A program made the translations under genes and the position numbers. DNA of 64,000 bases, taken from the NCBI GenBank assembly GCA_003660235.1, contig QGON01000049.1:1-64000 (forward strand), given 5' to 3'. A model generated the notes under the pieces. That model was not told the DNA's origin. It worked only from the letters and a program-made list of their open reading frames with translations, and did not search any database. Position 1 is the stretch's first letter. Every line of letters begins with the position of its first letter. Origin of the DNA: a bacterium endosymbiont of Escarpia laminata (lineage in GTDB: Bacteria; Pseudomonadota; Gammaproteobacteria; Chromatiales; Chromatiaceae). Below, piece after piece: positions 8,159 through 59,724 of this stretch.

Positions 8159-10420
8159 ATGCTCGAAACCCTGCATCGAATCGTCAAAGAGGTAAACGCC
8201 GCACCCGATCTGGGTGAGGCGCTGGAACTTATCGTAACGCGGGTGAAAAAAGCGGTGGACGTCGATGTCTGTTCCGTCTACCTGACCGATTTCGAGAGGC
8301 GCGAACATGTACTGCGCGCCACTGAAGGTTTGCAGTCTGCGGCTGTCGGTAAAGTCAGTCTCCCGCTGCATCGGGGGCTGATTGGGCTGGTATGCGAACG
8401 CGCCGAGCCGGTCAACGTTGCGGATGCCCCCAATCATCGTCACTATCTGTTTACCCACGAGACGGGTGAAACTCGCTATCACGGTTTTCTCGGTGTGCCG
8501 ATTATCCAGAATCGCAGGGTTCTCGGTGTGCTGGTGGTGCGTCAGATTGAGCAGCGTACCTTCGATGACAACGAGGTAACCTTCCTCTTTACCCTTGCCG
8601 CACAGCTTGCGGGCGCCATAACCCATGCTCAGGCGAGTGGCGAGCTCGTCACCATGGAGGGTGTGGCGACTCCCACCCGTTTTCTGCAAGGACGCGCCGG
8701 TGCTCCAGGCGTGGCACTGGGCACTGCGGTAGTCGTCTATCCCCCCGCTGATCTGGACGCGGTACCCGACCGCAAGGCAGAAGATCTTGAGCAGGAGGAG
8801 GAGGATTTCCGCACCGCAGTGGCCGCAGTGGTGGAGGATTTGATGGCCCTGGAAGACCGGCTGGAAGATAGTCTGCCCGCTGAAGACCGGGCGCTGTTCG
8901 ATGCCTGGCTCATGATGTTGGGCAGCGACTCTTTGATCGGTAAGACAGTGGAACGCATCACGGCTGGCGATTGGGCGGCCGGTGCCTTGCGTCAGACCAT
9001 CGAGGAACATGCCAAGGTGTTCGATAACATGGACGATATCTACCTGCGGGAGCGGGCGTCCGATGTGCGTGATCTGGGTCGCCGTATACTCATGCACCTG
9101 CAGCAGGAAAGTTTCGGCACGGTGGACTATCCGGAGAACACCATCCTGGTCGGTGATGAGGTCAGCGCCATGCAACTTGCCGATGTGCCGATGGATCGCC
9201 TTGCGGGCCTTGTTTCGTCCAAAGGTGCAAGTTTCTCCCATGTCGCAATTCTGGCCCGGGCAATGGGCATTCCTGCGGTTATGGGGGTGATCGACCTGCC
9301 CGTGGGACGGGTCGATGGACGTTTTCTCATCAGCGACGGCTACCGGGGGCGTATCTATGTTTCACCGGCGTCGTCAGTGAGAGCCGAATACCTGCGGCTG
9401 GCGGAAGAGGATCGGGCGCTGAGCGAAGAGCTGGAGGCGACCCGTGATCTGCCTTCAGAGACCTCCGACGGGGTACCTGTGCGGCTCTATCTGAACACCG
9501 GTCTGGTCTCCGAGATGAGTACCCTGGGTTCCGATGAGGCTGAGGGGGTCGGTCTCTATCGAACGGAAGTTCCCTTCATGGTACGCGACCGTTTCCCCAG
9601 TGAGGCGGCACAGACCGCAAACTATCGGCATGTTCTCGAGACCTTTGCGCCCAGGCCTGTCACCATACGCACCCTCGATATTGGTGGCGATAAACCCCTG
9701 CCCTATTTTCCGGTCAATGAATCCAATCCATTCCTGGGCTGGCGCGGTATTCGTATCTCGCTGGATCATCCAGAGATATTTCTTACCCAAGTGCGTGCCA
9801 TGCTGCGTGCAGCCATCGGCTTGGACAATCTGCGGCTGTTATTGCCGATGATCAGCAATGTGAGTGAGGTGGATGACTCACTGCTGTTGATCCAACGGGC
9901 ACACGATGAACTGATCGAAGAGGGACATGGGGTGAAGATGCCGCGTGTCGGCGTGATGATAGAAGTGCCGGCTGCGGTCTATCAGGTGGAGGCGCTGGCG
10001 CGCCGGGTCGACTTTCTCTCTATCGGCACTAATGATTTGACCCAGTATCTGTTGGCGGTGGATCGCAACAACCCTCATGTGGCGGAGATCTACGATGATC
10101 TGCATCCCGCTGTGTTGCGTGCTCTGATTCAGGTAGTGGAGGGGGGCAGGCAACATCACCGGGAGGTTAGTGTCTGTGGTGAGATGGCAGGCAGTCCTGC
10201 AGCGGTGATCTTGCTGCTGGGTATGGGGGTCGACAATCTCAGTATGAGCGCCAGTAGCCTGCTACGGGTGAAGTGGGTGATTCGTTCCATCAGCCGCGCC
10301 AGGGCCAGGGAACTGCTGCAGGCGGCGCTGCGCTGCGAAAAGGCCGCTGAAGTCAGAGCGTTGCTCAGCAATGCGCTGGAAGAGATAGGGCTGGGTGGCT
10401 TGGTCAGGGCGGGTAAATAG
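8159..10420 (+). CDS. ptsP: Phosphoenolpyruvate-protein phosphotransferase PtsP (enzyme I-Ntr)
   Basis: This is the first enzyme of the nitrogen-related PTS: it autophosphorylates from PEP and passes phosphate to NPr. It has 753 residues, as expected. A GAF domain occupies about residues 1-160. The enzyme I part follows with the phosphohistidine loop (KGASFSHVAILARAMGIPAV), the PEP-binding barrel (EGVGLYRTEVPFM, TIRTLDIGGDKPLPYF, LLLPMISNVSEV, IEVPAAVYQVE) and the active-site Cys of VCGEMAG. CAGAGGG lies six bases before the ATG. No HPr, NPr or EIIA gene is present nearby. It probably feeds regulatory phosphorylation rather than sugar uptake. Confidence 0.96.
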   Translation: MLETLHRIVKEVNAAPDLGEALELIVTRVKKAVDVDVCSVYLTDFERREHVLRATEGLQSAAVGKVSLPLHRGLIGLVCERAEPVNVADAPNHRHYLFTHETGETRYHGFLGVPIIQNRRVLGVLVVRQIEQRTFDDNEVTFLFTLAAQLAGAITHAQASGELVTMEGVATPTRFLQGRAGAPGVALGTAVVVYPPADLDAVPDRKAEDLEQEEEDFRTAVAAVVEDLMALEDRLEDSLPAEDRALFDAWLMMLGSDSLIGKTVERITAGDWAAGALRQTIEEHAKVFDNMDDIYLRERASDVRDLGRRILMHLQQESFGTVDYPENTILVGDEVSAMQLADVPMDRLAGLVSSKGASFSHVAILARAMGIPAVMGVIDLPVGRVDGRFLISDGYRGRIYVSPASSVRAEYLRLAEEDRALSEELEATRDLPSETSDGVPVRLYLNTGLVSEMSTLGSDEAEGVGLYRTEVPFMVRDRFPSEAAQTANYRHVLETFAPRPVTIRTLDIGGDKPLPYFPVNESNPFLGWRGIRISLDHPEIFLTQVRAMLRAAIGLDNLRLLLPMISNVSEVDDSLLLIQRAHDELIEEGHGVKMPRVGVMIEVPAAVYQVEALARRVDFLSIGTNDLTQYLLAVDRNNPHVAEIYDDLHPAVLRALIQVVEGGRQHHREVSVCGEMAGSPAAVILLLGMGVDNLSMSASSLLRVKWVIRSISRARARELLQAALRCEKAAEVRALLSNALEEIGLGGLVRAGK

Positions 10421-10437: not shown

Positions 10438-11610
10438 ATGAAATATTTTTTTAAAACTTGCACGACTATTTTCATCGTATTGACGATGGTCGGTGCTATT
10501 TATGCAAATACTGACAGGTTGGGAAGCAGTGACCACCCCCTGATATCCAGGATGCAGGGTTTCTGGATCGCTTCCTATAAAGAGAGTGAAATTGATTCGC
10601 ATTCATTTCGCGATAGTGCCAATAATAAAATTAACATTGAAGGGCATTACTACCATATCGAATATCGTCTGAAAAAAGGTGCCCAAGCGCCGGGCCGTTT
10701 GAGGATACTCAAGCATCATGAAAATGCGTTAAAAGGGACAGATGCTGAAATCTTAAAGAGAACAAAAAAAGATTTGTACTTCAAAGTCGCAAAAGAGGGC
10801 CAGGAGATCTGGATTCAAGTCCGTGCTTTGGAGCGCGTCTATCGCTTGACCATCGTGGAACGCGGGCAGAAGGAACATAAAGTTGAGGCCGAACCGGCGG
10901 CATCCCCGGCAGATAATGCGATCAGTACAGCAGATATCCATGAGGCCGCAAAGAGCGGGACTCTGGATGAGGTTAAAGCGCTTATTGCCAAAGGAGAAAA
11001 AGTTAACGCAAAAGATGATCGCAACCTCACGCCGCTCTACTATGCTGCATACGCCGGTCACAAAGAAATATGCCAATTTCTTATAAATCAGGGTGCCGAT
11101 GTCAATGCAGCTCCAGAACCTTTCTATACCCCTTTATATGCGGCCCTCAACAAGCGTAGTAAAAATGGCGAGGAAATATTCAAGTTGCTTGTTGAACGGG
11201 GAGCTGATTTTAACATGATGGTTGGAGGCTATGCGTTGCTGCACAATGCTGCTTTAAGCTGCCATGATGAGGGTCAAAGGCATATTGCCGAGTTTCTGAT
11301 TTCTAAAGGGGCGGACATCAATGTTAGGGGTTATCAGGATAAAACGCCTCTGCATATGGTGGGTTGCAAGGAGATTAGCGAGCTTCTCATTTCAAAGGGG
11401 GCCGATATTGAAGCCAGGGATAAAAACGGCCGAACACCACTGTTTGAGGCCTGTTCCAGAAAAAGAAAGGAAATTTGTCGTCTTCTCATATCCAGGGGAG
11501 CGGATGTCAATGCCAGAAACAACCGTAGCTGGACCCCTTTGCGACAGGCGCTTGAGAAGGGTTATTCCGAAGTTGTCGATATCCTGAAAAAACACGGAGG
11601 GGTTAAGTGA
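10438..11610 (+). CDS. Secreted ankyrin-repeat protein
   Basis: The ATG at 10438 (MKYFFKTCTTIFIVLTMVGA) gives a clean signal peptide; a GTG at 10429 adds only three residues. The mature protein has a small N-terminal beta-rich region (about residues 30-150, RMQGFWIASYKESEID), then about six ankyrin repeats with the usual cores TPLYYAAYAGHKEICQFLI, GADVNA, TPLHMVG, RTPLFEACSRKRKEICRLLI and TPLRQALEKGYSEVVDIL. It is probably periplasmic and mediates protein contacts. It starts 17 bases after ptsP, so it may be in the same transcript, but the function is unknown. Codon usage is more AT-rich than ptsP. Confidence 0.82.
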   Translation: MKYFFKTCTTIFIVLTMVGAIYANTDRLGSSDHPLISRMQGFWIASYKESEIDSHSFRDSANNKINIEGHYYHIEYRLKKGAQAPGRLRILKHHENALKGTDAEILKRTKKDLYFKVAKEGQEIWIQVRALERVYRLTIVERGQKEHKVEAEPAASPADNAISTADIHEAAKSGTLDEVKALIAKGEKVNAKDDRNLTPLYYAAYAGHKEICQFLINQGADVNAAPEPFYTPLYAALNKRSKNGEEIFKLLVERGADFNMMVGGYALLHNAALSCHDEGQRHIAEFLISKGADINVRGYQDKTPLHMVGCKEISELLISKGADIEARDKNGRTPLFEACSRKRKEICRLLISRGADVNARNNRSWTPLRQALEKGYSEVVDILKKHGGVK

Positions 11611-52866: not shown

Positions 52867-53301
52867 TCAGGATAATATGTGCTCCAATTCCTGTTTAGAG
52901 AAACCGGCATCCTCTCCGTACTCCTGTCTCAGATCCTTATCGGCAAGATCTCTGGCACTGGGTTTATCATGGCGGTTATCAAGATGAAAATCGTACCTGT
53001 CCCGTAGGTAACGGTGGCGCTTCCAGGCATTTCTTTGGGCAACGGCTACTGTGGTTGACTGTTGGGCCCGCAGGGATTTCACGGCACTATTACGCGGCTT
53101 CCTCTTTTTGTTTTTTTCGGTTTTGCCGTCCTTGACTTGGTGGCGCAGGGCCTCAATTGTGTTTTTGCAGTGTTTGAGTTCAGCCTCCAGTCGTTTGATC
53201 CTCTGTTTAAGATCCCGGATGCCTGCCTGATCCTCTACGGCGCTCGGAGCGCGAATCTTGTCTTTCTTCTTTAGCTTTTTCTTTTCTTTCTTTTTCATCA
53301 T
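52867..53301 (-). CDS. Basic coiled-coil protein, unknown
   Basis: The ATG pair at 53296-53301 (MMKKKEKKKLKKKDKIRAPS) gives 144 residues; the TTG at 53322 is an alternative start. It has a lysine-rich N-terminus, a coiled coil (residues about 30-65, DLKQRIKRLEAELKHCKNTI) and another basic stretch. A C-terminal part (RYLRDRYDFHLDNRHDKPSA, RQEYGEDAGFSKQELEHILS) has the look of a short helical tail. No signal peptide. Nucleic-acid binding is possible from charge alone; function unknown. Confidence 0.65.
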   Translation of the reverse strand: MMKKKEKKKLKKKDKIRAPSAVEDQAGIRDLKQRIKRLEAELKHCKNTIEALRHQVKDGKTEKNKKRKPRNSAVKSLRAQQSTTVAVAQRNAWKRHRYLRDRYDFHLDNRHDKPSARDLADKDLRQEYGEDAGFSKQELEHILS

Positions 53302-53322
53302 GCATTCAACCGCGAAGCGCAA

Positions 53323-53672
53323 CTGTAAGTTTAATCTCTAGTGTTATGGAAAACCTCGAAAGATGTCAAGTGGCCGGGGCGTTTCGTGGTTGAATACCAG
53401 TTTGTGGCTACGTCCAGACTACTGAGGCACCGTCAAACGAAAGGGACGGCAACGGTTAGGTTTGGGCTACGTTGGTGAGATGCCTGCTCTCTACTCTACC
53501 CTATTGTTTCTATAGGGGGCTATAAATATCTGTCTGGAATGTCGGCTTCGGATGTTAATAAACAGCATGGACAACCGTTTGGTAAGGCGCCGGAATGATA
53601 TGTGATTAATTATTTTCCCCAGGTTGTTTTGAGGTGAGAGTTTCTCGGTCTGCATGATTCAACACCATAACC
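53323..53672. other. Intergenic region upstream of the DGR RNA
   Basis: I see no gene in these 350 bases. They are AT-richer than the DGR RNA that follows and end just before its candidate promoter. Confidence 0.4.
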
Positions 53673-53701
53673 TTGCCGCATAAGAAATATCTTTCTATAG
53701 T
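53673..53701 (+). promoter_or_regulatory. Candidate promoter of the DGR RNA
   Basis: TTGCCG (53673-53678), a 17-base spacer and TATAGT (53696-53701) make a good sigma-70 pair. Transcription from about 53708 would yield an RNA that starts at a small hairpin (TGTCAC-CTGT-GTGACA, 53706-53721) and runs through the template repeat. Confidence 0.6.
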
Positions 53702-53705
53702 GGGG

Positions 53706-54040
53706 TGTCACCTGTGTGACAGGGGCAAACCCGGCCAGGTCTGCGCGGCGGCGCGTTCAACAACAATCCGCGTAACGCCCGTTGTGGCTACCGCAACAAC
53801 AACAACCCTGAAATCAGGAACAACAACAGGGGTTTTCGTGTGGCCAGCACACCCCATCGCGAGAGCGGCAGGGCGCATATGCGCCTTGTCGGCGTGCAAA
53901 GGGGAGTTCAGGGTTTGTCCCGGCCAGCGGCGGAGCCGGGGGCCAAAGATAAAACGCCGTGTCCCGCTGTGGTAGCCCCAAGGGCGAAGCACCGGGGTGC
54001 GGCAACTCGAACATCACTGCAGTCATTTAGTGAAATTTTC
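53706..54040 (+). ncRNA. Candidate DGR RNA (template RNA with structured 3' part)
   Basis: The RNA would carry a 5' hairpin, the template repeat (53737-53847) and a GC-rich, highly self-complementary spacer up to the target gene. The spacer includes a perfect palindrome GGCGCATATGCGCC (53872-53885), CCCGGC paired with GCCGGG, and GCACCGGGGTGC. In known DGRs (Bordetella phage) a comparable structured RNA segment next to the TR is required for cDNA priming and Avd/RT binding. Its ends and role here are inferred from position and structure only. Confidence 0.65.
53737..53847 (+). repeat. DGR template repeat (TR)
   Basis: This 111-base segment is a near copy of the 3' end of the target gene (VR, 56788-56901). 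Identical cores are GGTCTGCGCGGCGGCGCGTT at the left and GGTTTTCGTGTGGCCAG at the right. Between them, 17 substitutions all occur at TR adenines. The TR is rich in AAC codons, as expected for a template whose adenines are mutagenised. It is 3 bases shorter than the VR within an AAC run. Confidence 0.96.
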
Positions 54041-56914
54041 ATGGATTCTGAAGTAACCAGCTCAGCGGAAAAGACAGCGGGAAAATTAATCTCCGAACGT
54101 TACCTGGTTCCAATATTGGAGCGGTTGGACTTTTGGTCCAGAAAAAAGGTTTGGGAGATTAAGAAAAAACAACCGGGATGGCGTATCGATTACCTCGATT
54201 ATCTATTGAGGGAAGGTGATTTTATCGATGGTGGCGACCGGCCAGAGAGTCATGTTGGTGAGTTGATGGATCAGCCGCTTAGGCTGAGACTTGCCTACCT
54301 TACACCCAGGCTTCGACGCCTCTCAGCAGGCCGGGGTGAATACAGTCAGCCTACGGATGAAGATGAATGCTCGCTCTCTGCGGCTGTTGGCAAGACTGTC
54401 GATATCTGGAGCAATGAAGCAGCGCTGCCTGAGTTGGCCAGCCAGCGTCTGGACGCTATTCCTGCCATGTTCATCAAGGGTGGGCCGGGCAGCGGCAAGA
54501 GCACCTTAAGTCGGTGGTTGGCGAGTCGTTATGCAGCGCTTTGGATGCGCAATCATGCCCAGGCAATAGGTGCATCATCACCAACAGCCAGTGAATTCAG
54601 CGAGCTGCCAGATTGGGAGAATGCGCCTTTCCCTCTCTTTGTTGAGTTTGCCGGTATCGATCTGGATGGGGAGGAGTGTAGTTTTCAGACGGTCATCGAG
54701 CGACATGTCAGGGAAATACTCAGGGCCAGTGGGAGTCGGGAATCTATCGTGGCTAGCCAGCTGAAAGAGCTGCTGGAAAAGCCCCTTGTGTTGATTTTCG
54801 ATGCCCTGGATCAAGTGCCAGACATGGTGCAGCGAGAACGGTTGGTCGAATGGGTTTCTGGTGAATGCAAGCGACTGAAGCAACGGAAGACAAACGGTGA
54901 TTCCATGCTGATATTCACCTGCCGCAGCCAGGCGGATATCCCTGACAGTAAGACGAACTTCATCAATACAGGCTGTATCGCTTGGCAACTGGAAGAACTG
55001 GATGAAGGACAGATCCCGCAATTCATTACCCACTGGATGCGTGCTTGGGAAGAATCGACACGCAGTGATACTCCCCCTGATCTTGAGCGGACAGTAGAAA
55101 AACATAGAGATAGCCTGCTCGATAAACTCGACCGCATTCAGCAAAAAAACCAGTCATTTAATAAGCTTCTTCGAGTGCCGCTGTTGCTGGATCTGGTCTG
55201 TCGGCTCTCTAAACACCATGTTGAAATTCCAGACCAGCGTGCCTTGGTTTTCGACCGTCTGATACAACTCTCCCTGGAGAGTTGGCAGAGGAAACTGCAG
55301 CTTAGTGAAGCGGAATGCGCACAACTCATCGATTTTTGCGAGTATCTGGCCTGGCATGCTGTGGAGGCGGGGGCAACAGGCGGCACAACGGATGGCGGTA
55401 ACGCCATGAGTTTTTCATTTGTTACAAGACAATCGCAGCAATGGTGTCAACAAAACGGGTCGGCTGACATTCCGGCAAATGAGATGGTGAAACTGCTCAA
55501 GGGGGACGTGAGTTTTCTGGTTCGGGAGACACATACCGATTTCATCCGCTTCACCCACCAACAGTTTCAGGAATTCCTTGCAGCAAGATATCTGGTTTCG
55601 TCGATGCAGGAGCCACTTCAACTGACAAGTGATGATCGATGGATACAGGTGGCCAGTTTCGCCGCTGAGATGGTGGAAGAGGGCACACAGGCAGATAAGT
55701 TATGGTTCGCGATGCAAAGGATCAGCTGGCTCGAATCATCGAGCCGACCTTTTCTTACATCATTTGAGCATTTTTCCAAGCCAGGATTATTAAGCAAGCT
55801 GATCAATTGTTTTGGCCAAAAATTATTGGATATAACGGTATCACCTCGCGATCGAGCATGGTCGGCCATCTGGTTTCACCGGCTGCGAATGGCTGCCGGT
55901 GTGGAATGGAACTGGAGTGAGTTGAGGGGGCTGATAGAAAACCCAGCCTTGGATGATCTGACCAAGGCCCATTGCATGATGATGCTGGCTGAATGTCCGT
56001 TAGAAGACCGGCCTGAAATTATCCAATGGCTCAACGAATGTCTGACTGACGACACCCAAGCCTACCTCAACCACTGTCGCGCCCTGACCCTCTCCATGCT
56101 TGGTTATGGCTGGGCGACAGGTCAGAAAACCGAATCAAAGGCAAGAGAGGAGCGGCAGCGGCTGGATGGATACCTCTACGTGCAGATGGAGGGAGGCAAG
56201 TTCCAGATGGGGCATGCGGATGAATCAGACAACCCACCCCGATCAGAGATCAGCAAGCCCTGTCGGATGCGCAGGTTTCCCGTGACTCGTGCCGAGTATG
56301 CCCGGTTCATGGGGACAGCCGCTTTTCAGCGCTTTTTGCGCAACCGGGGAAAAACATTGAATAGCGATAAATGGGATCAACCGCGCTATTGGAAAGACCC
56401 GGATTATATCCATCCAGGTGCGCCGGTAGTGGGTGTCTCCTGGTTTGAGTCCCGTGCCTGCGCTCATGCCCTGCTGGCTGAGCCTGACGAGCCTCTACCA
56501 TCCCCTGCCGAACAGGCAGATGATAGTTGCCCCTGGTTACCCCGTGAAACCGAGTGGGAGCGAGCTGCCTCTTGGGATACAGAGAGGGAGCGAAAACGGG
56601 AATACCCCTGGAGGGATTGGCAAGATGATTCGCCCCAGCGCCGCTGCAATATCGGTGATTCCAAACTAGGGCAGACCAGCCCGGTGATTGCCTTTCCTCA
56701 TGGAGTATCGCCTAACGGCTGCTACGAGATGTCAGGCAACGTCTGGGAGTGGCAGGCAAACTGGTACGATAAGAGTGAGAGTGGCAAAGGTCTGCGCGGC
56801 GGCGCGTTCCACGGCCTTCCGCGTGACGCCCGTTGTGGCTGCCGCTACTACGACGGCGTCCCTGAAATCTGGGTCAACTACGGGGGTTTTCGTGTGGCCA
56901 GAACTGATTTGTAA
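54041..56914 (+). CDS. DGR target: NACHT-like NTPase fused to formylglycine-generating-enzyme/C-type-lectin-like variable domain
   Basis: The ATG at 54041 gives 957 residues. Residues 1-140 are charged and unrecognised. A STAND/NACHT NTPase follows with Walker [11 protein letters not shown] (about 147-156) and Walker [12 protein letters not shown] (about 248-258). Then comes a helical middle, and residues 710-957 are an FGE-sulfatase/CLec domain ([51 protein letters not shown]). The last about 38 residues are encoded by the VR (ending [10 protein letters not shown]), so the binding face can be diversified. This layout is that of an NLR-like sensor: NTPase switch plus variable recognition domain. 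The open frame extends upstream through the TR to 53720 but without a good start. No catalytic effector domain is obvious; the N-terminal part is the candidate. Confidence 0.9.
56788..56901 (+). repeat. DGR variable repeat (VR) with IMH-like 3' end
   Basis: This 114-base region encodes residues 916-954 of the target protein. The substituted codons lie at residues that in CLec DGR proteins form the ligand-binding face: CAC GGC CTT, GAC, TGC, TAC TAC GAC GGC GTC, TGG GTC, TAC and GGG. The 3' end GGTTTTCGTGTGGCCAG is identical to the TR and would serve as the initiation-of-mutagenic-homing segment. Confidence 0.96.
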
Positions 56915-56944
56915 TCCTTGAGCCTTTTTCCCTTTAACCCTTGA

Positions 56945-56960
56945 TGGCGCGATAGCGCCA
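56945..56960. promoter_or_regulatory. Hairpin with GATA tetraloop downstream of the VR
   Basis: TGGCGC-GATA-GCGCCA, 43 bases after the VR end, forms a perfect 6-bp stem with a GRNA-type tetraloop. Hairpin or cruciform structures with GRNA loops just after the VR have been reported as target-site elements in other DGRs; its function here is an inference. Confidence 0.6.
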
Positions 56961-56983
56961 CCGCGTAAAACTGGGTGTACACC

Positions 56984-57358
56984 ATGAGTCAGAAACGGAG
57001 AACCACCACGCCAGTCATCTTGGAGAAACAGTACGATCTGCTGCTGTGGCTGCAGAAGCAGGTGCCGCAGTTTCCCCGCTCACACCGGTTTGTCCTGGGG
57101 GATCGACTGTTGGGCGTGGGATTGGATATGCAGGGCTTGCTGGTGGAAGCCAGTTTCACCCGCGATAAGCGGGCACTGCTGCAACAGGCGGGTATCAAGT
57201 TGGCACAGTTGCGTTATCTGGTTCGAATGGCAAAGGATCTGGAGTTCTTTTCTATTCGTCAGTACGGCTACCTGGCTGAAAAGATGGAGGAGATGGGGCG
57301 GATGATCGGCGGTTGGATGAAGCAGCAGGGGGCGGTACAGGGTGAAGCGTCACGGTAA
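56984..57358 (+). CDS. avd: DGR accessory variability determinant Avd
   Basis: The ATG at 56984 (MSQKRRTTTPVILEKQYDLL) gives 124 residues. It is an all-alpha protein of the Avd/S23-like four-helix-bundle family: VPQFPRSHRFVLGDRL, LLVEASFTRDKRALLQQAG, LAQLRYLVRMAKDLEFFSIR and the final KMEEMGRMIGGWMKQ. In known DGRs Avd forms a pentamer that binds the RT and the template RNA and is essential for homing. The gene sits between the target and the RT, overlapping the RT by 17 bases, so the two are co-translated. Confidence 0.93.
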   Translation: MSQKRRTTTPVILEKQYDLLLWLQKQVPQFPRSHRFVLGDRLLGVGLDMQGLLVEASFTRDKRALLQQAGIKLAQLRYLVRMAKDLEFFSIRQYGYLAEKMEEMGRMIGGWMKQQGAVQGEASR

Positions 57359-58412
57359 TCTGTTTGATTCGCTGGTCAGTTTCGAGAACCTCCATCTGGC
57401 GGCTAACAAAGCCAGAAAAAGCAAACGACACAAACCCGATGTGGCGCGCTATTTTGCCGATCTTGAAAATAACCTGATTTGCTTGCAGCGTTCACTGGGT
57501 GATCTCTCCTGGCAGCCTGGCCCCTATCGCTCGTTTGAGATCCGAGAACCCAAAACCCGGTTGATCAGCGCAGCGCACTTTTCTGACCGTGTGGTGCATC
57601 ATGCCCTTTGTAACATCGTGGAGCCGCTGATCGATCGCTCCTTCATTTATGACAGTTACGCCAATCGCAAGGGTAAGGGAACTCACCGTGCCATCCTGCG
57701 CTGCGGTGATTTTATGAGGTGCTACCCCTATGTATTGCAGTGTGATATTCGCAAGTATTTTCCCTCCATCGATCACCAGATCCTCAAGGCCGAACTTCAT
57801 CGCCGCCTGAAAGATAGGCGAGTGCTTCTCTTGCTGGAGCGTATTATCGATGGCAGCAATCAACAGGAGGCTGTCTACGCAACTTTTCCTGGTGATGATC
57901 TGTTTACCCCGTTAGAGCGGCGGCAGGGGCTGCCCATTGGTAATCTGACCTCGCAGTTCCTGGCCAATCTCTATATGGATCCGCTGGATCAGTTCATCAA
58001 GCGCCATTTGAAGTGCAGGGCGTACCTGCGTTACAGCGATGATTTTTTACTCTTCGCTGCTGATAAGCGGACATTGAATGATTGGCGGGCTGAATTGGTA
58101 TCCTTTTTGTCAGGTTTGCGGCTGCGGCTGCATTCGGGAAAGAGCCGAGTCTACCCCTCGCGGGATGGCATTACCTTTCTTGGCTTTCGTCACTTCCCTC
58201 ACTATCGCCGTATTGTTCGTCCAACGGTTACCCGGCGTTGGCAACGCCTAAAAGAGCTGCAAGCAGCATATAGGCTGGGTGAGATCGGTTTGGGTGATGT
58301 GACGGCCTCTATGGCGGCCTGGAATGGGCATGCCCGCTATGCAAATAGCTGGTCTTTAAGGGAGCAGATGATGGAGGGAGTTGTTTTCAGTCAGCCAGAA
58401 GGTGTTCAGTAG
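57342..58412 (+). CDS. DGR reverse transcriptase
   Basis: This is a 356-residue RT starting at GTG 57342. The DGR hallmark is in motif 4: QGLPIGNLTSQFLANLYMD, where SQ replaces the SP of other RTs. The catalytic site is YLRYSDDFLLFAAD (YxDD), with the first Asp block in VLQCDIRKYFPSID. The end resembles the thumb region (FLGFRHFPHYRRIVRPTVTR). It copies the TR RNA with frequent errors opposite adenine; the cDNA then replaces the VR. It has no other fused domain. The next element downstream is a hairpin inserted in an IS remnant. Confidence 0.96.
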   Translation: MKRHGNLFDSLVSFENLHLAANKARKSKRHKPDVARYFADLENNLICLQRSLGDLSWQPGPYRSFEIREPKTRLISAAHFSDRVVHHALCNIVEPLIDRSFIYDSYANRKGKGTHRAILRCGDFMRCYPYVLQCDIRKYFPSIDHQILKAELHRRLKDRRVLLLLERIIDGSNQQEAVYATFPGDDLFTPLERRQGLPIGNLTSQFLANLYMDPLDQFIKRHLKCRAYLRYSDDFLLFAADKRTLNDWRAELVSFLSGLRLRLHSGKSRVYPSRDGITFLGFRHFPHYRRIVRPTVTRRWQRLKELQAAYRLGEIGLGDVTASMAAWNGHARYANSWSLREQMMEGVVFSQPEGVQ

Positions 58413-58422
58413 AGATTGAGAA

Positions 58423-58481
58423 TTCTGGGGACAGTATACTTAATTCAGTCTTGCTGCTAATTGGGTATACTGTCCCCAGAA
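58423..58481. repeat. Hairpin element with perfect 17-bp arms
   Basis: TTCTGGGGACAGTATAC (58423-58439), 25 bases, then its exact complement (58465-58481). The following sequence is the IS3 orfA remnant, cut off exactly at this element. The arms resemble REP-type or MITE-like hairpins associated with Y1-type transposases. Confidence 0.8.
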
Positions 58482-58485
58482 ATCC

Positions 58486-58761
58486 CTCCTTACGCTGTTG
58501 CTGCCCACGTCCAAACACGGTATCAGCGTTCTCAAGAAGCCGCTTACGCCAATCCTGGATTTGATTTGGGTGCACGTCGAACTGTTCTGCCAGCTCCGCG
58601 AGTGTCCTGTCATTTTTTATGGCTGCCAGAGCAACCTTGGCCTTGAAGGCCGATGAATGATTACGTTTCTTTCTTCTCATCTTCTGCTCTCTCTTATTCA
58701 GTTAGAATATTCGCAGAAGACACTTATAATTTCAGCTTTCCTGTCCGACTACTGGGGGCCA
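58486..58761 (-). pseudogene. IS3-family remnant: orfA N-terminus and left end
   Basis: The orfA frame starts at 58680 (RRKKRNHSSAFKAKVALAAI) and runs through the HTH to FGRGQQQ, then changes into hairpin sequence and has no OrfB. The upstream sequence (CGCAGAAGACACTTATAATT) and end GGGGGCCA (58754-58761) match the IS at 1-655. The rest of the element is lost. Confidence 0.9.
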
Positions 58762-59105
58762 CTTTAGACGACGTATTTATTGATCTTACTGTGGGTGGCA
58801 CTGTGGCTGTATAGCATCCCTGTATTCAGGCCAGAATCATGCCATGCGCCTGGACCGTGTGGGTTCTGTCAGGGGTGGAGCATGGTGGGATTGGCAGGTG
58901 GTGGAAAATGATGCGCCAGTACGACTGGAGGCGATGGCGACCTGACAGAGAGGACGGGGCTCCCATTGCCCATGGGCAGCAGTCCACCACTACCAAGGCA
59001 CAGACGCCAGTTTCTCCATGATCTTCCAGAGAGGCCTGACATGCTCTTAAATCCCGTGGTGAGGGTGAGCGATGGTTAACCGTCGTCCTTGTTGGTGATT
59101 AGTCA
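58762..59105. other. Intergenic region between the IS remnant and the toxin gene
   Basis: I see no supported gene in these 340 bases. A plus-strand frame from ATG 58844 (MRLDRVGSVRGGAWWDWQVV) stops after 33 codons at 58943; it could be a gene remnant, but I recognise no family. Another open frame (58839-59021) overlaps it and has no support. Confidence 0.4.
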
Positions 59106-59396
59106 TTATTCGACAAGTCGTTTTTTGGCCGTCTTGTAAGCTCGATTTCTCTCGCGTTTACCTACGGAGAGGACCAAGACAACGACTTCTCCCTGGTCCA
59201 CATGGTAGACCAGCCGGTAACCGGAGCCACGTTGTTTGATTTTGTAACAATCCGGCATTCCATACAGCCTGGCGGCAGGGCGGATAGGGTTTTCGAGGAC
59301 TTTCTCAAGTTTGTTTTTGAGTGGCCCTCGAATGCTTTGATCGAGACTGTTCCACTCGTCCAGCGCCTCTGGCATGAATTTCAGCTCATAAGTCAT
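59106..59396 (-). CDS. RelE-like toxin
   Basis: The ATG at 59394-59396 (MTYELKFMPEALDEWNSLDQ) gives 96 residues; an upstream start is possible. RelE/ParE-type fold: LKNKLEKVLENPIRPAARLY, YKIKQRGSGYRLVYHVDQGE and VLSVGKRERNRAYKTAKKRL, with the basic residues used by RelE toxins to cut mRNA at the ribosome. It overlaps the antitoxin by 11 bases. A Rel-type type II pair next to the DGR may stabilise the region. Confidence 0.9.
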   Translation of the reverse strand: MTYELKFMPEALDEWNSLDQSIRGPLKNKLEKVLENPIRPAARLYGMPDCYKIKQRGSGYRLVYHVDQGEVVVLVLSVGKRERNRAYKTAKKRLVE

Positions 59397-59640
59397 CCAG
59401 CGAAACCGGAATTGCCTCATCAGCACGGCTCAGGCGCTCACGGGCGATGGTGGCAAGTTCGATATCATCTAGGCGCCCCACCATCTCTTCAAATAATTCG
59501 GCTGGTACGCAATAGAACTCGGGTGTATCTCGGTTGAGCACAGCCACAGGCTCACCGTGCCCCGCCGAGACAAACTTGGAGGGATTGCGCTTTAGTTCGG
59601 AAATTGAGCCGACAAACTCAGCAAGGATTGCGTGTGGCAT
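59386..59640 (-). CDS. RelB/Phd-like antitoxin
   Basis: The ATG at 59638-59640 (MPHAILAEFVGSISELKRNP) gives 84 residues; the frame is open upstream. The N-terminal DNA-binding region resembles Phd/YefM (ISELKRNPSKFVSAGHGEPV, AVLNRDTPEFYCVP), followed by an acidic toxin-binding tail (SRADEAIPVSLDDL). It should repress its own operon with the toxin. A perfect palindrome lies upstream (59705-59724). Confidence 0.88.
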   Translation of the reverse strand: MPHAILAEFVGSISELKRNPSKFVSAGHGEPVAVLNRDTPEFYCVPAELFEEMVGRLDDIELATIARERLSRADEAIPVSLDDL

Positions 59641-59704
59641 GATTTTCGCCTTTTTGGCTAAAGGGACCGGCTTTGGTTCCCTAAGTTGTCTTTCTGGAAT
59701 TATC

Positions 59705-59724
59705 TCGTCTCCCATGGGAGACGA
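59705..59724. promoter_or_regulatory. 20-bp perfect palindrome, likely antitoxin operator
   Basis: TCGTCTCCCATGGGAGACGA is fully self-complementary and lies 64 bases upstream of the antitoxin start. Antitoxin dimers of the RelB/Phd type bind such palindromes to autoregulate the operon. Confidence 0.75.

What the first reader, a model, noticed from the sequence alone, without database searches (positions are those of the whole stretch)
53673..58412. Complete diversity-generating retroelement (DGR) with NLR-like target protein
TR (53737-53847), target gene with VR, avd and DGR-type RT (motif LPIGNLTSQ) are contiguous and same-strand. Seventeen TR/VR substitutions in the core all fall at TR adenines, and the codons hit are at the CLec/FGE binding face. 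The target joins a NACHT-like NTPase (Walker A GGPGSGKS) to the variable domain, so a hypermutable NLR-like sensor is the likely product. DGR targets joining NTPase/NACHT-type modules to CLec/FGE domains have been described in some bacteria; whether this arrangement (TR upstream of the target) and N-terminus are new is unknown.
Basis: partly seen in the sequence, partly recalled or inferred. Interest (0 to 1): 0.97.

Follow-up and report, generated by a model that had tools for sequence, protein, structure and literature searches.

The report
Self-mutating immune-sensor gene with leading template
A complete gene-diversifying retroelement rewrites the tip of a bacterial immune-sensor-like protein; such elements are already known, but here the template RNA sits in front of the sensor gene instead of beside the reverse transcriptase gene.

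Summary
TR and VR differ at 17 core positions, all TR adenines (P 2.6e-12). The target joins NACHT and FGE-sulfatase (C-type-lectin-fold) domains. Avd and a DGR-type RT follow.

I add five things. (1) Directly 3' of the TR lies a structured RNA, 53844-54002: a covariance model built only from relatives has it as its sole match in the window. (2) A candidate target-site hairpin 3' of the VR, 56945-56960, has a GATA loop, but is not significant alone. (3) The VR has one codon more than the TR, inside an AAC tract. (4) Of 72 RT loci with a same-strand TR/VR pair, only this one has the TR 5' of both target and RT. (5) Two congeners examined lack the element here, and the genome holds a second DGR with a broken RT.

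NACHT/STAND-CLec DGR targets were published in 2024 (PMC10907252) and variable cassette order in 2012 (PMC3521204). I file it as a new member of a known kind with an unusual gene order. Present-day activity was not testable.

The parts
53673..53701 (+). sigma-70-like promoter TTGCCG-17-TATAGT, 35 nt before the TR (weak)
   Evidence: no more such sites than in shuffles (3 found, 4.0 expected), so position is the only argument
53737..53847 (+). template repeat (TR), reads [36 protein letters not shown] in the VR frame
53844..54002 (+). structured RNA that follows the TR (3' part of the DGR RNA)
   Evidence: covariance model R1 from 10 relatives without the window: sole match in 64 kb at E up to 10, full length, 37.9 bits, E 2.1e-7; Rfam RT-14 31.2 bits and RT-3 18.7 bits, both below gathering; fold z -2.92
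54041..56914 (+). target gene, 957 aa: uncharacterised N-terminus, NACHT NTPase, helical region, FGE-sulfatase/CLec-type domain
   Evidence: NACHT E 1.2e-6, FGE E 5.5e-33
54479..54502 (+). Walker A motif GGPGSGKS
   Evidence: sequence
56180..56902 (+). FGE-sulfatase domain holding the VR
   Evidence: fold matches
56788..56904 (+). variable repeat (VR); 17 A-directed substitutions and one extra codon relative to the TR
56945..56960 (+). hairpin TGGCGC-GATA-GCGCCA, 43 nt after the VR core, candidate target-recognition stem-loop
   Evidence: P 0.095 alone; GRNA loop rule from PMC3240598 (passages)
56975..57358 (+). avd (DGR accessory protein)
   Evidence: NCBIfam NF033474 98.9 bits, cutoff 80; Pfam bAvd 72.1 bits, cutoff 40
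57342..58412 (+). DGR-type reverse transcriptase, 356 aa, open
   Evidence: Pfam RVT_1 73.2 bits, cutoff 29.6; best solved relative 8ub7, E 1.1e-43
58420..58760 (.). mobile-element scar after the RT: inverted repeat 58420-58484 (26-nt arms) and a transposase-like orfA, apparently truncated (58387-58680, -)
   Evidence: 58486-58760 is 81% identical to 380-654 of this contig

Best explanation
A complete cellular DGR built to diversify one NACHT-FGE sensor-like protein. Inferred steps: a transcript starting just 5' of the TR carries the TR and the structured RNA; the RT-Avd complex binds that RNA and copies the TR into cDNA with errors opposite adenines; the cDNA replaces the VR of the target, guided by the 19-bp identical 3' end and the hairpin 3' of the VR. 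The new VR changes the surface of the C-terminal lectin-fold domain, so the NACHT protein can meet new ligands, most likely phage or competitor molecules, and trigger a response through its unknown N-terminus. The order TR-RNA-target-avd-RT is a circular permutation of avd-RT-TR-RNA-target seen in relatives, perhaps produced by mobile-element rearrangement. Shown: parts, adenine bias, RNA homology, order, absence from the slot in two congeners. Inferred: transcription, binding, homing, sensing, origin of the order. The confidence is for the DGR mechanism and its target, whether or not the element is active today; sensing is weighed in rival 2.
For: 17 of 17 core substitutions at TR A, P 2.6e-12. 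Target NACHT and FGE above Pfam cutoffs. Avd above NCBIfam cutoff. RT closest in PDB to 8ub7. R1 RNA model: sole window match, at the TR 3' end; in the whole 4.25-Mb genome 3 matches at E up to 10, the only two full-length ones being 3' of this TR and 3' of the second DGR's TR (the latter was in the training set). R1 training alignment: 20 of 31 pairs with double changes. Hairpin 3' of the VR. TR-first order in 1 of 72 loci. Insertion: congener G076 aligns up to 53400 and again from 59978, G075 up to 53311 and again from 59100.
Against: No reads or second strain of this locus, so activity is unproven. TR and VR differ in length. The promoter is no better than chance by count. The hairpin alone is not significant (P 0.095, mononucleotide shuffles of the 90 nt). 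No Pfam domain in residues 1-135. NACHT is only 2.2 bits above its cutoff. No DGR-specific RT model matched; the best NCBIfam RT match is group II intron RT at 139 bits against a cutoff of 300, and PADLOC gave 88 general RT families. No RT remnant 5' of the TR, which a tandem-duplication origin might leave. With stricter filters the R1 search of 210 genomes missed the window's own copy.
Confidence: 0.85

Rival explanations
1. The element is a recently silenced DGR: mobile DNA removed the TR that in many relatives follows the RT, and the upstream TR-RNA is a leftover that no longer feeds homing.
For: Scar of an inverted repeat and a truncated transposase gene directly after the RT. TR and VR differ by a codon. 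Doré et al. report transposon and MITE-like decay of DGR parts, TR included. The second DGR of this genome has a broken RT.
Against: RT, avd and target are open; the upstream TR still pairs with this VR with 17 of 17 A-type substitutions and 22/19-bp identical ends; the RNA still scores.
Confidence: 0.2
2. The DGR works but its target is not an immune sensor; the NACHT-FGE protein serves adhesion or signalling.
For: No phage-defence model matched the target (PADLOC). No effector gene was recognised next to it; of the neighbours only 52867-53322 and 58387-58680 were searched against families, the rest judged by eye.
Against: NACHT/STAND plus variable CLec is the architecture that Doré et al. 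tie to NACHT antiphage systems, and the second DGR target in this genome looks by eye like a STAND-type NTPase plus FGE (FGE part by tblastn).
Confidence: 0.2
3. TR/VR similarity is an ordinary duplication of part of a gene.
For: The TR can be read as protein.
Against: All 17 substitutions at A in one copy, with RT, Avd and DGR RNA beside it.
Confidence: 0.01

Closest known systems
STAND/NACHT-CLec DGRs of Thiohalocapsa PB-PSB1, DGR 3 and DGR 6 (Doré et al. 2024, PMC10907252; abstract, sections 5, 6, 7 and part 1 of 2 of section 11 seen)
   Same: Cellular DGR whose targets join a NACHT or nSTAND NTPase to a C-terminal variable CLec/FGE domain; mobile-element scars at the loci.
   Different: Here a single target, TR-RNA at the front of the cassette, and an RT at most 53% identical to any of 58 compared RTs. 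Their gene orders are in figures I could not see.
Bordetella phage BPP-1 DGR (PMC12875486 and PMC3240598, passages seen; the RNP structure paper is not held)
   Same: TR, VR, Avd, RT, structured RNA 3' of TR, identical 3' end of TR and VR, hairpin with GRNA loop 3' of VR.
   Different: BPP-1 has avd-TR-spacer-RT; here TR-RNA precedes the target. Stem 6 bp at 43 nt, against 7-10 bp at 4-34 bp in the phage set of PMC3240598.
DGR cassette classes of Schillinger et al. 2012 (PMC3521204; section 13 and passages seen, figure 7 not visible)
   Same: Group 1: TR upstream of RT.
   Different: The majority order is VR-TR-RT (56.6%). Whether any subgroup is TR-VR-RT could not be read from the text.
Rfam RT-14 (RF02921) and RT-3 (RF03068) RNAs
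   Same: Full-length matches to 53848-54002 and 53855-54001.
   Different: Both below gathering score. What these families are was recalled; their source paper is not held.

Membership tests
Diversity-generating retroelement | TR/VR pair with substitutions confined to TR adenines | tested here: met
   17 of 17 in the core, P 2.6e-12
Diversity-generating retroelement | DGR-type RT with (I/V/L)GxxxSQ motif | tested here: met
   IGNLTSQ in the ORF, motif as in PMC3521204 (passage); PDB best 8ub7, which I recall as the BPP-1 RT
Diversity-generating retroelement | Avd accessory protein | tested here: met
   NF033474 98.9 bits, cutoff 80
Diversity-generating retroelement | invariant 3' end of TR/VR (IMH-like) | tested here: met
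   19 bp identical; its function was not tested
Diversity-generating retroelement | hairpin with GRNA loop 3' of VR | tested here: inconclusive
   TGGCGC-GATA-GCGCCA at 56945-56960; loop fits, 6-bp stem not significant alone (P 0.095). Same GATA loop in L045, L049, L061, L062
Diversity-generating retroelement | structured RNA 3' of TR | tested here: met
Diversity-generating retroelement | active mutagenic homing | not testable with these tools
   no reads or second strain of the locus; metagenome scans are capped at 0
STAND/NACHT-CLec DGR sensors (Doré et al.) | NACHT or STAND NTPase fused to VR-bearing CLec domain | tested here: met
   NACHT 28.9 bits against cutoff 26.7
STAND/NACHT-CLec DGR sensors (Doré et al.) | RT in clade 5 (5D) | not tested
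   the reference RTs of that tree were not at hand by name; own tree of 59 RTs leaves the window RT on a lone deep branch in no well-supported group
Antiviral STAND / NLR | N-terminal effector or adapter domain | tested here: inconclusive
   no Pfam match in residues 1-135 at E up to 10; AlphaFold model of that part below pLDDT 50
Antiviral STAND / NLR | defence activity | not testable with these tools
   bench test needed

The most novel reading that the evidence does not exclude
The template RNA is the 5' leader of the sensor's own mRNA: one promoter makes one transcript that is at once mutagenesis template, RT-docking RNA, sensor mRNA and avd-RT mRNA. Sensor expression and sensor rewriting would then be coupled, and RT-Avd bound to the leader could repress translation of the target, whose start codon lies 38 nt after the RNA.
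Probability: 0.3. Interest if true: 0.65.

Novelty: new member of a known kind. Interest (0 to 1): 0.42.

Why it matters
It adds a complete, self-contained case of a DGR on an NLR-like bacterial protein, with a single target, in a genome that also carries a decayed second one. The permuted order suggests that TR plus its structured RNA travels as one module and can sit 3.5 kb from the RT, at the front of the target. If leader and template are one transcript, this is a simple system for asking whether bacteria couple receptor expression to receptor rewriting.

Tried and rejected
Tandem duplication with loss of an upstream RT: searched 53301-53740 and 58413-58900 in three + strand frames each with an RT profile; best E 0.77, noise. 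So no remnant supports that origin; the permuted order itself stands.

TR contraction as the cause of the length difference: the R-to-GFR spacing encoded by TRs is 12 in 47 of 50 readings (some TRs counted twice) and 12 in the window TR, but 13 in the window VR. An extra codon in the VR fits better. PMC12875486 (passage) cites earlier work (Wu 2018, not held) for slippage by multiples of three in AAC repeats, so this is not new.

Rfam at gathering score in relatives: in 23 loci the only match was one tRNA. In 9 loci at E up to 0.5, 8 matches, of which one, RT-7, lies after a TR (L074) and the rest look like chance. So Rfam alone would not have settled the RNA.

R1 across 210 genomes: 22 matches in 18 genomes, with stricter filters that missed the window's own copy. 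By coordinates against, 16 of 22 lie beside a listed RT. The other six were fetched: L183, L184 and L185 have an RT or RT fragment near, L186 and L187 only an FGE match, L188 none of the queries. L187 has RNA then an FGE ORF, but its contig begins 91 nt before the RNA, so its order is unknown.

Other relatives of the RT: viral contigs 3 loci at 34-36%; a class-wide sample, 2 of 369 genomes besides the own at E 1e-90; phages 123 records and plasmids 1862 records, all under 60% identity. Target: no match besides itself at E 1e-25 in 210 genomes; residues 1-690 match in 11 of 210 genomes, own included, at E 1e-6; plasmids 77 records, none covering 80%, the ten listed in the FGE part only.

Rows dropped: one search left out L050, L056, L057, RTs with stops or under 310 aa, and most loci above L095. 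One search used only same-strand VRs with 9 or more mismatches and 90 nt after them. One search used pairs of 65 or more columns with 6 or more mismatches, 80% at A.

Target structure: mean pLDDT 54.6, pTM 0.35; fold matches outside the FGE domain were not used. Tandem repeats: none. Papers: full-text searches for RT-3 RNA and for RT-14 with DGR gave 0; one search listed none on DGR among the 15 shown; PMC10053308 held none of five terms.

Full report
What is there. The window holds, on the + strand, a TR (53737-53847), a target gene (ATG 54041 to 56914), avd (56975-57358) and an RT gene (57342-58412). Aligned, TR and VR (56788-56904) differ by 17 substitutions in the core, each at an A of the TR, plus one 3-nt gap; one further mismatch, at a C, lies beyond the core. 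With 30 A in 111 TR bases, the chance of 17 of 17 is 2.6e-12. Hits fall on codon position 1 (12) and 2 (5), never 3. The 5' 22 bp and the 3' 19 bp are identical.

The proteins. The 957-aa target matches Pfam NACHT (28.9 bits, cutoff 26.7) and FGE-sulfatase (115.1 bits, cutoff 23.3). A weak NLRC4_HD2 match (E 0.041) follows the NACHT part, and residues 1-135 match nothing in Pfam. Avd passes NCBIfam DivGenRetAVD and Pfam bAvd. The RT is nearest in the PDB to 8ub7, which I recall as the BPP-1 DGR RT; no DGR-specific RT model matched in the libraries used. In a tree of 59 RTs the window RT stands on a deep branch in no well-supported group, at most 53% identical to another. A model of the target was poor (mean pLDDT 54.6); its FGE part matches solved FGE and EgtB chains and, at rank 14 (E 5.3e-3), the Treponema denticola variable protein 2y3c.

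The RNA. Rfam RT-14 (31.2 bits, gathering 48.1) and RT-3 (18.7 bits, gathering 40.5) both match directly 3' of the TR, full length but below gathering. I aligned the post-TR stretches of ten relatives without the window, chosen by eye; RNAalifold gave 31 pairs, 20 with double changes in at least one sequence. The covariance model from them, R1, has one match in the 64-kb window at E up to 10: 53844-54002, full length, 37.9 bits, E 2.1e-7 (E-values of such models are rough). In the own genome it has three matches at E up to 10: two full-length ones, both 3' of a TR and one of them a training member, and a partial one at E 0.085. In 37 further loci R1 gave 12 matches at E up to 1; the nine full-length ones begin within 45 nt of the 3' end of a TR found, the three partial ones do not. 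The other 25 of 37 loci gave no match, so R1 covers only part of the family. In BPP-1 the spacer 3' of the TR recruits RT-Avd and primes the cDNA (PMC12875486, passage).

The target site. A hairpin TGGCGC-GATA-GCGCCA lies 43 nt after the VR core. PMC3240598 (passages) gives GC-rich stems of 7-10 bp with GRNA loops, 4-34 bp from the VR in phage DGRs. The loop fits, the stem is short, and alone it is not significant (P 0.095). Across 92 VRs of the loci, 28 have a stem of 7 or more (one is a run of N), against about 4 expected from shuffles, and four of the 28 share the GATA loop with the window.

The order. One search sorts 106 RT records, window included: 72 have a TR/VR pair on the RT strand. 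In 43 the TR is 3' of the RT (12 of them with a target 3' of the TR), in 28 it lies between target and RT, and in 1, the window, it is 5' of both target and RT. Four have only opposite-strand or weak pairs and 30 none, many of these near contig ends. The window order is a circular permutation of avd-RT-TR-RNA-target. After the RT, the window has an inverted repeat and a truncated transposase gene. Doré et al. describe mobile-element remodelling of DGR loci. Schillinger et al. call cassette order flexible and infer separate transcription of the template RNA, which speaks against my boldest reading in general. So the order is unusual, not unprecedented in principle; I could not see their figure.

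The extra codon. TR codes RNNNNP, VR codes RYYDGVP. TR-encoded spacing is 12 in 47 of 50 readings and in the window TR; the window VR has 13. All five VR codons can derive from AAC by changes at A. Gapped TR/VR pairs are 7 of 104, window included; two of them (L074, L130) have one-base gaps, and L120 shows the same +1 codon in an AAT tract. This fits slippage of the RT in AAC tracts, as already proposed, though later duplication in the VR (TAC TAC) cannot be excluded.

Setting. Of the five congeners held, I compared two at this slot: G076 aligns to the window up to 53400 and again from 59978, G075 up to 53311 and again from 59100, with unaligned DNA between. G074, G076 and G078 have RT matches at other places. 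The element thus sits in a variable slot beside a tRNA-Met and rpoD (named by eye; conserved in all six genomes of the genus). The same genome has a second DGR on contig 11: a 970-aa target, an avd match (residues 9-88), an RT in three frames, and a TR with 21 of 21 substitutions at A. By eye that target looks like DUF4062 plus nSTAND1 plus FGE (recalled motifs; only the FGE part comes from a call, 24).

Verdict. A real and complete DGR on an NLR-like target, a new member of a kind described in 2024, with an unusual TR-first order. The bold reading, that template and sensor mRNA are one transcript, rests on order, on a promoter-like site 35 nt before the TR and on the lack of a terminator-like site on the + strand between TR and target; it is not excluded and not shown.

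Noticed in passing
G000 contig 11, L057:5977-10762: Second DGR in the same genome: 970-aa STAND-like/FGE target with VR 8762-8879, avd match, frameshifted RT, TR 10481-10598 and the RNA; 21 of 21 substitutions at TR A. The intact window RT might serve it in trans.
   Followed up: partly
L120:6858-6941, L140, L107, L128: Codon-sized gaps between TR and VR in four other DGR loci, as in the window; the L128 alignment is ambiguous.
   Followed up: partly
   Followed up: no
window 53848-54002; L074:1796-1846: Rfam families RT-14, RT-3 and RT-7 match weakly to RNA directly 3' of DGR TRs, so these families may be DGR template RNAs.
   Followed up: partly
window 59106-59715 (-): Toxin-antitoxin-like gene pair between the DGR and tRNA-Met/rpoD; DNA from 59100 on aligns to congener G075. 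Named by eye only.
   Followed up: no
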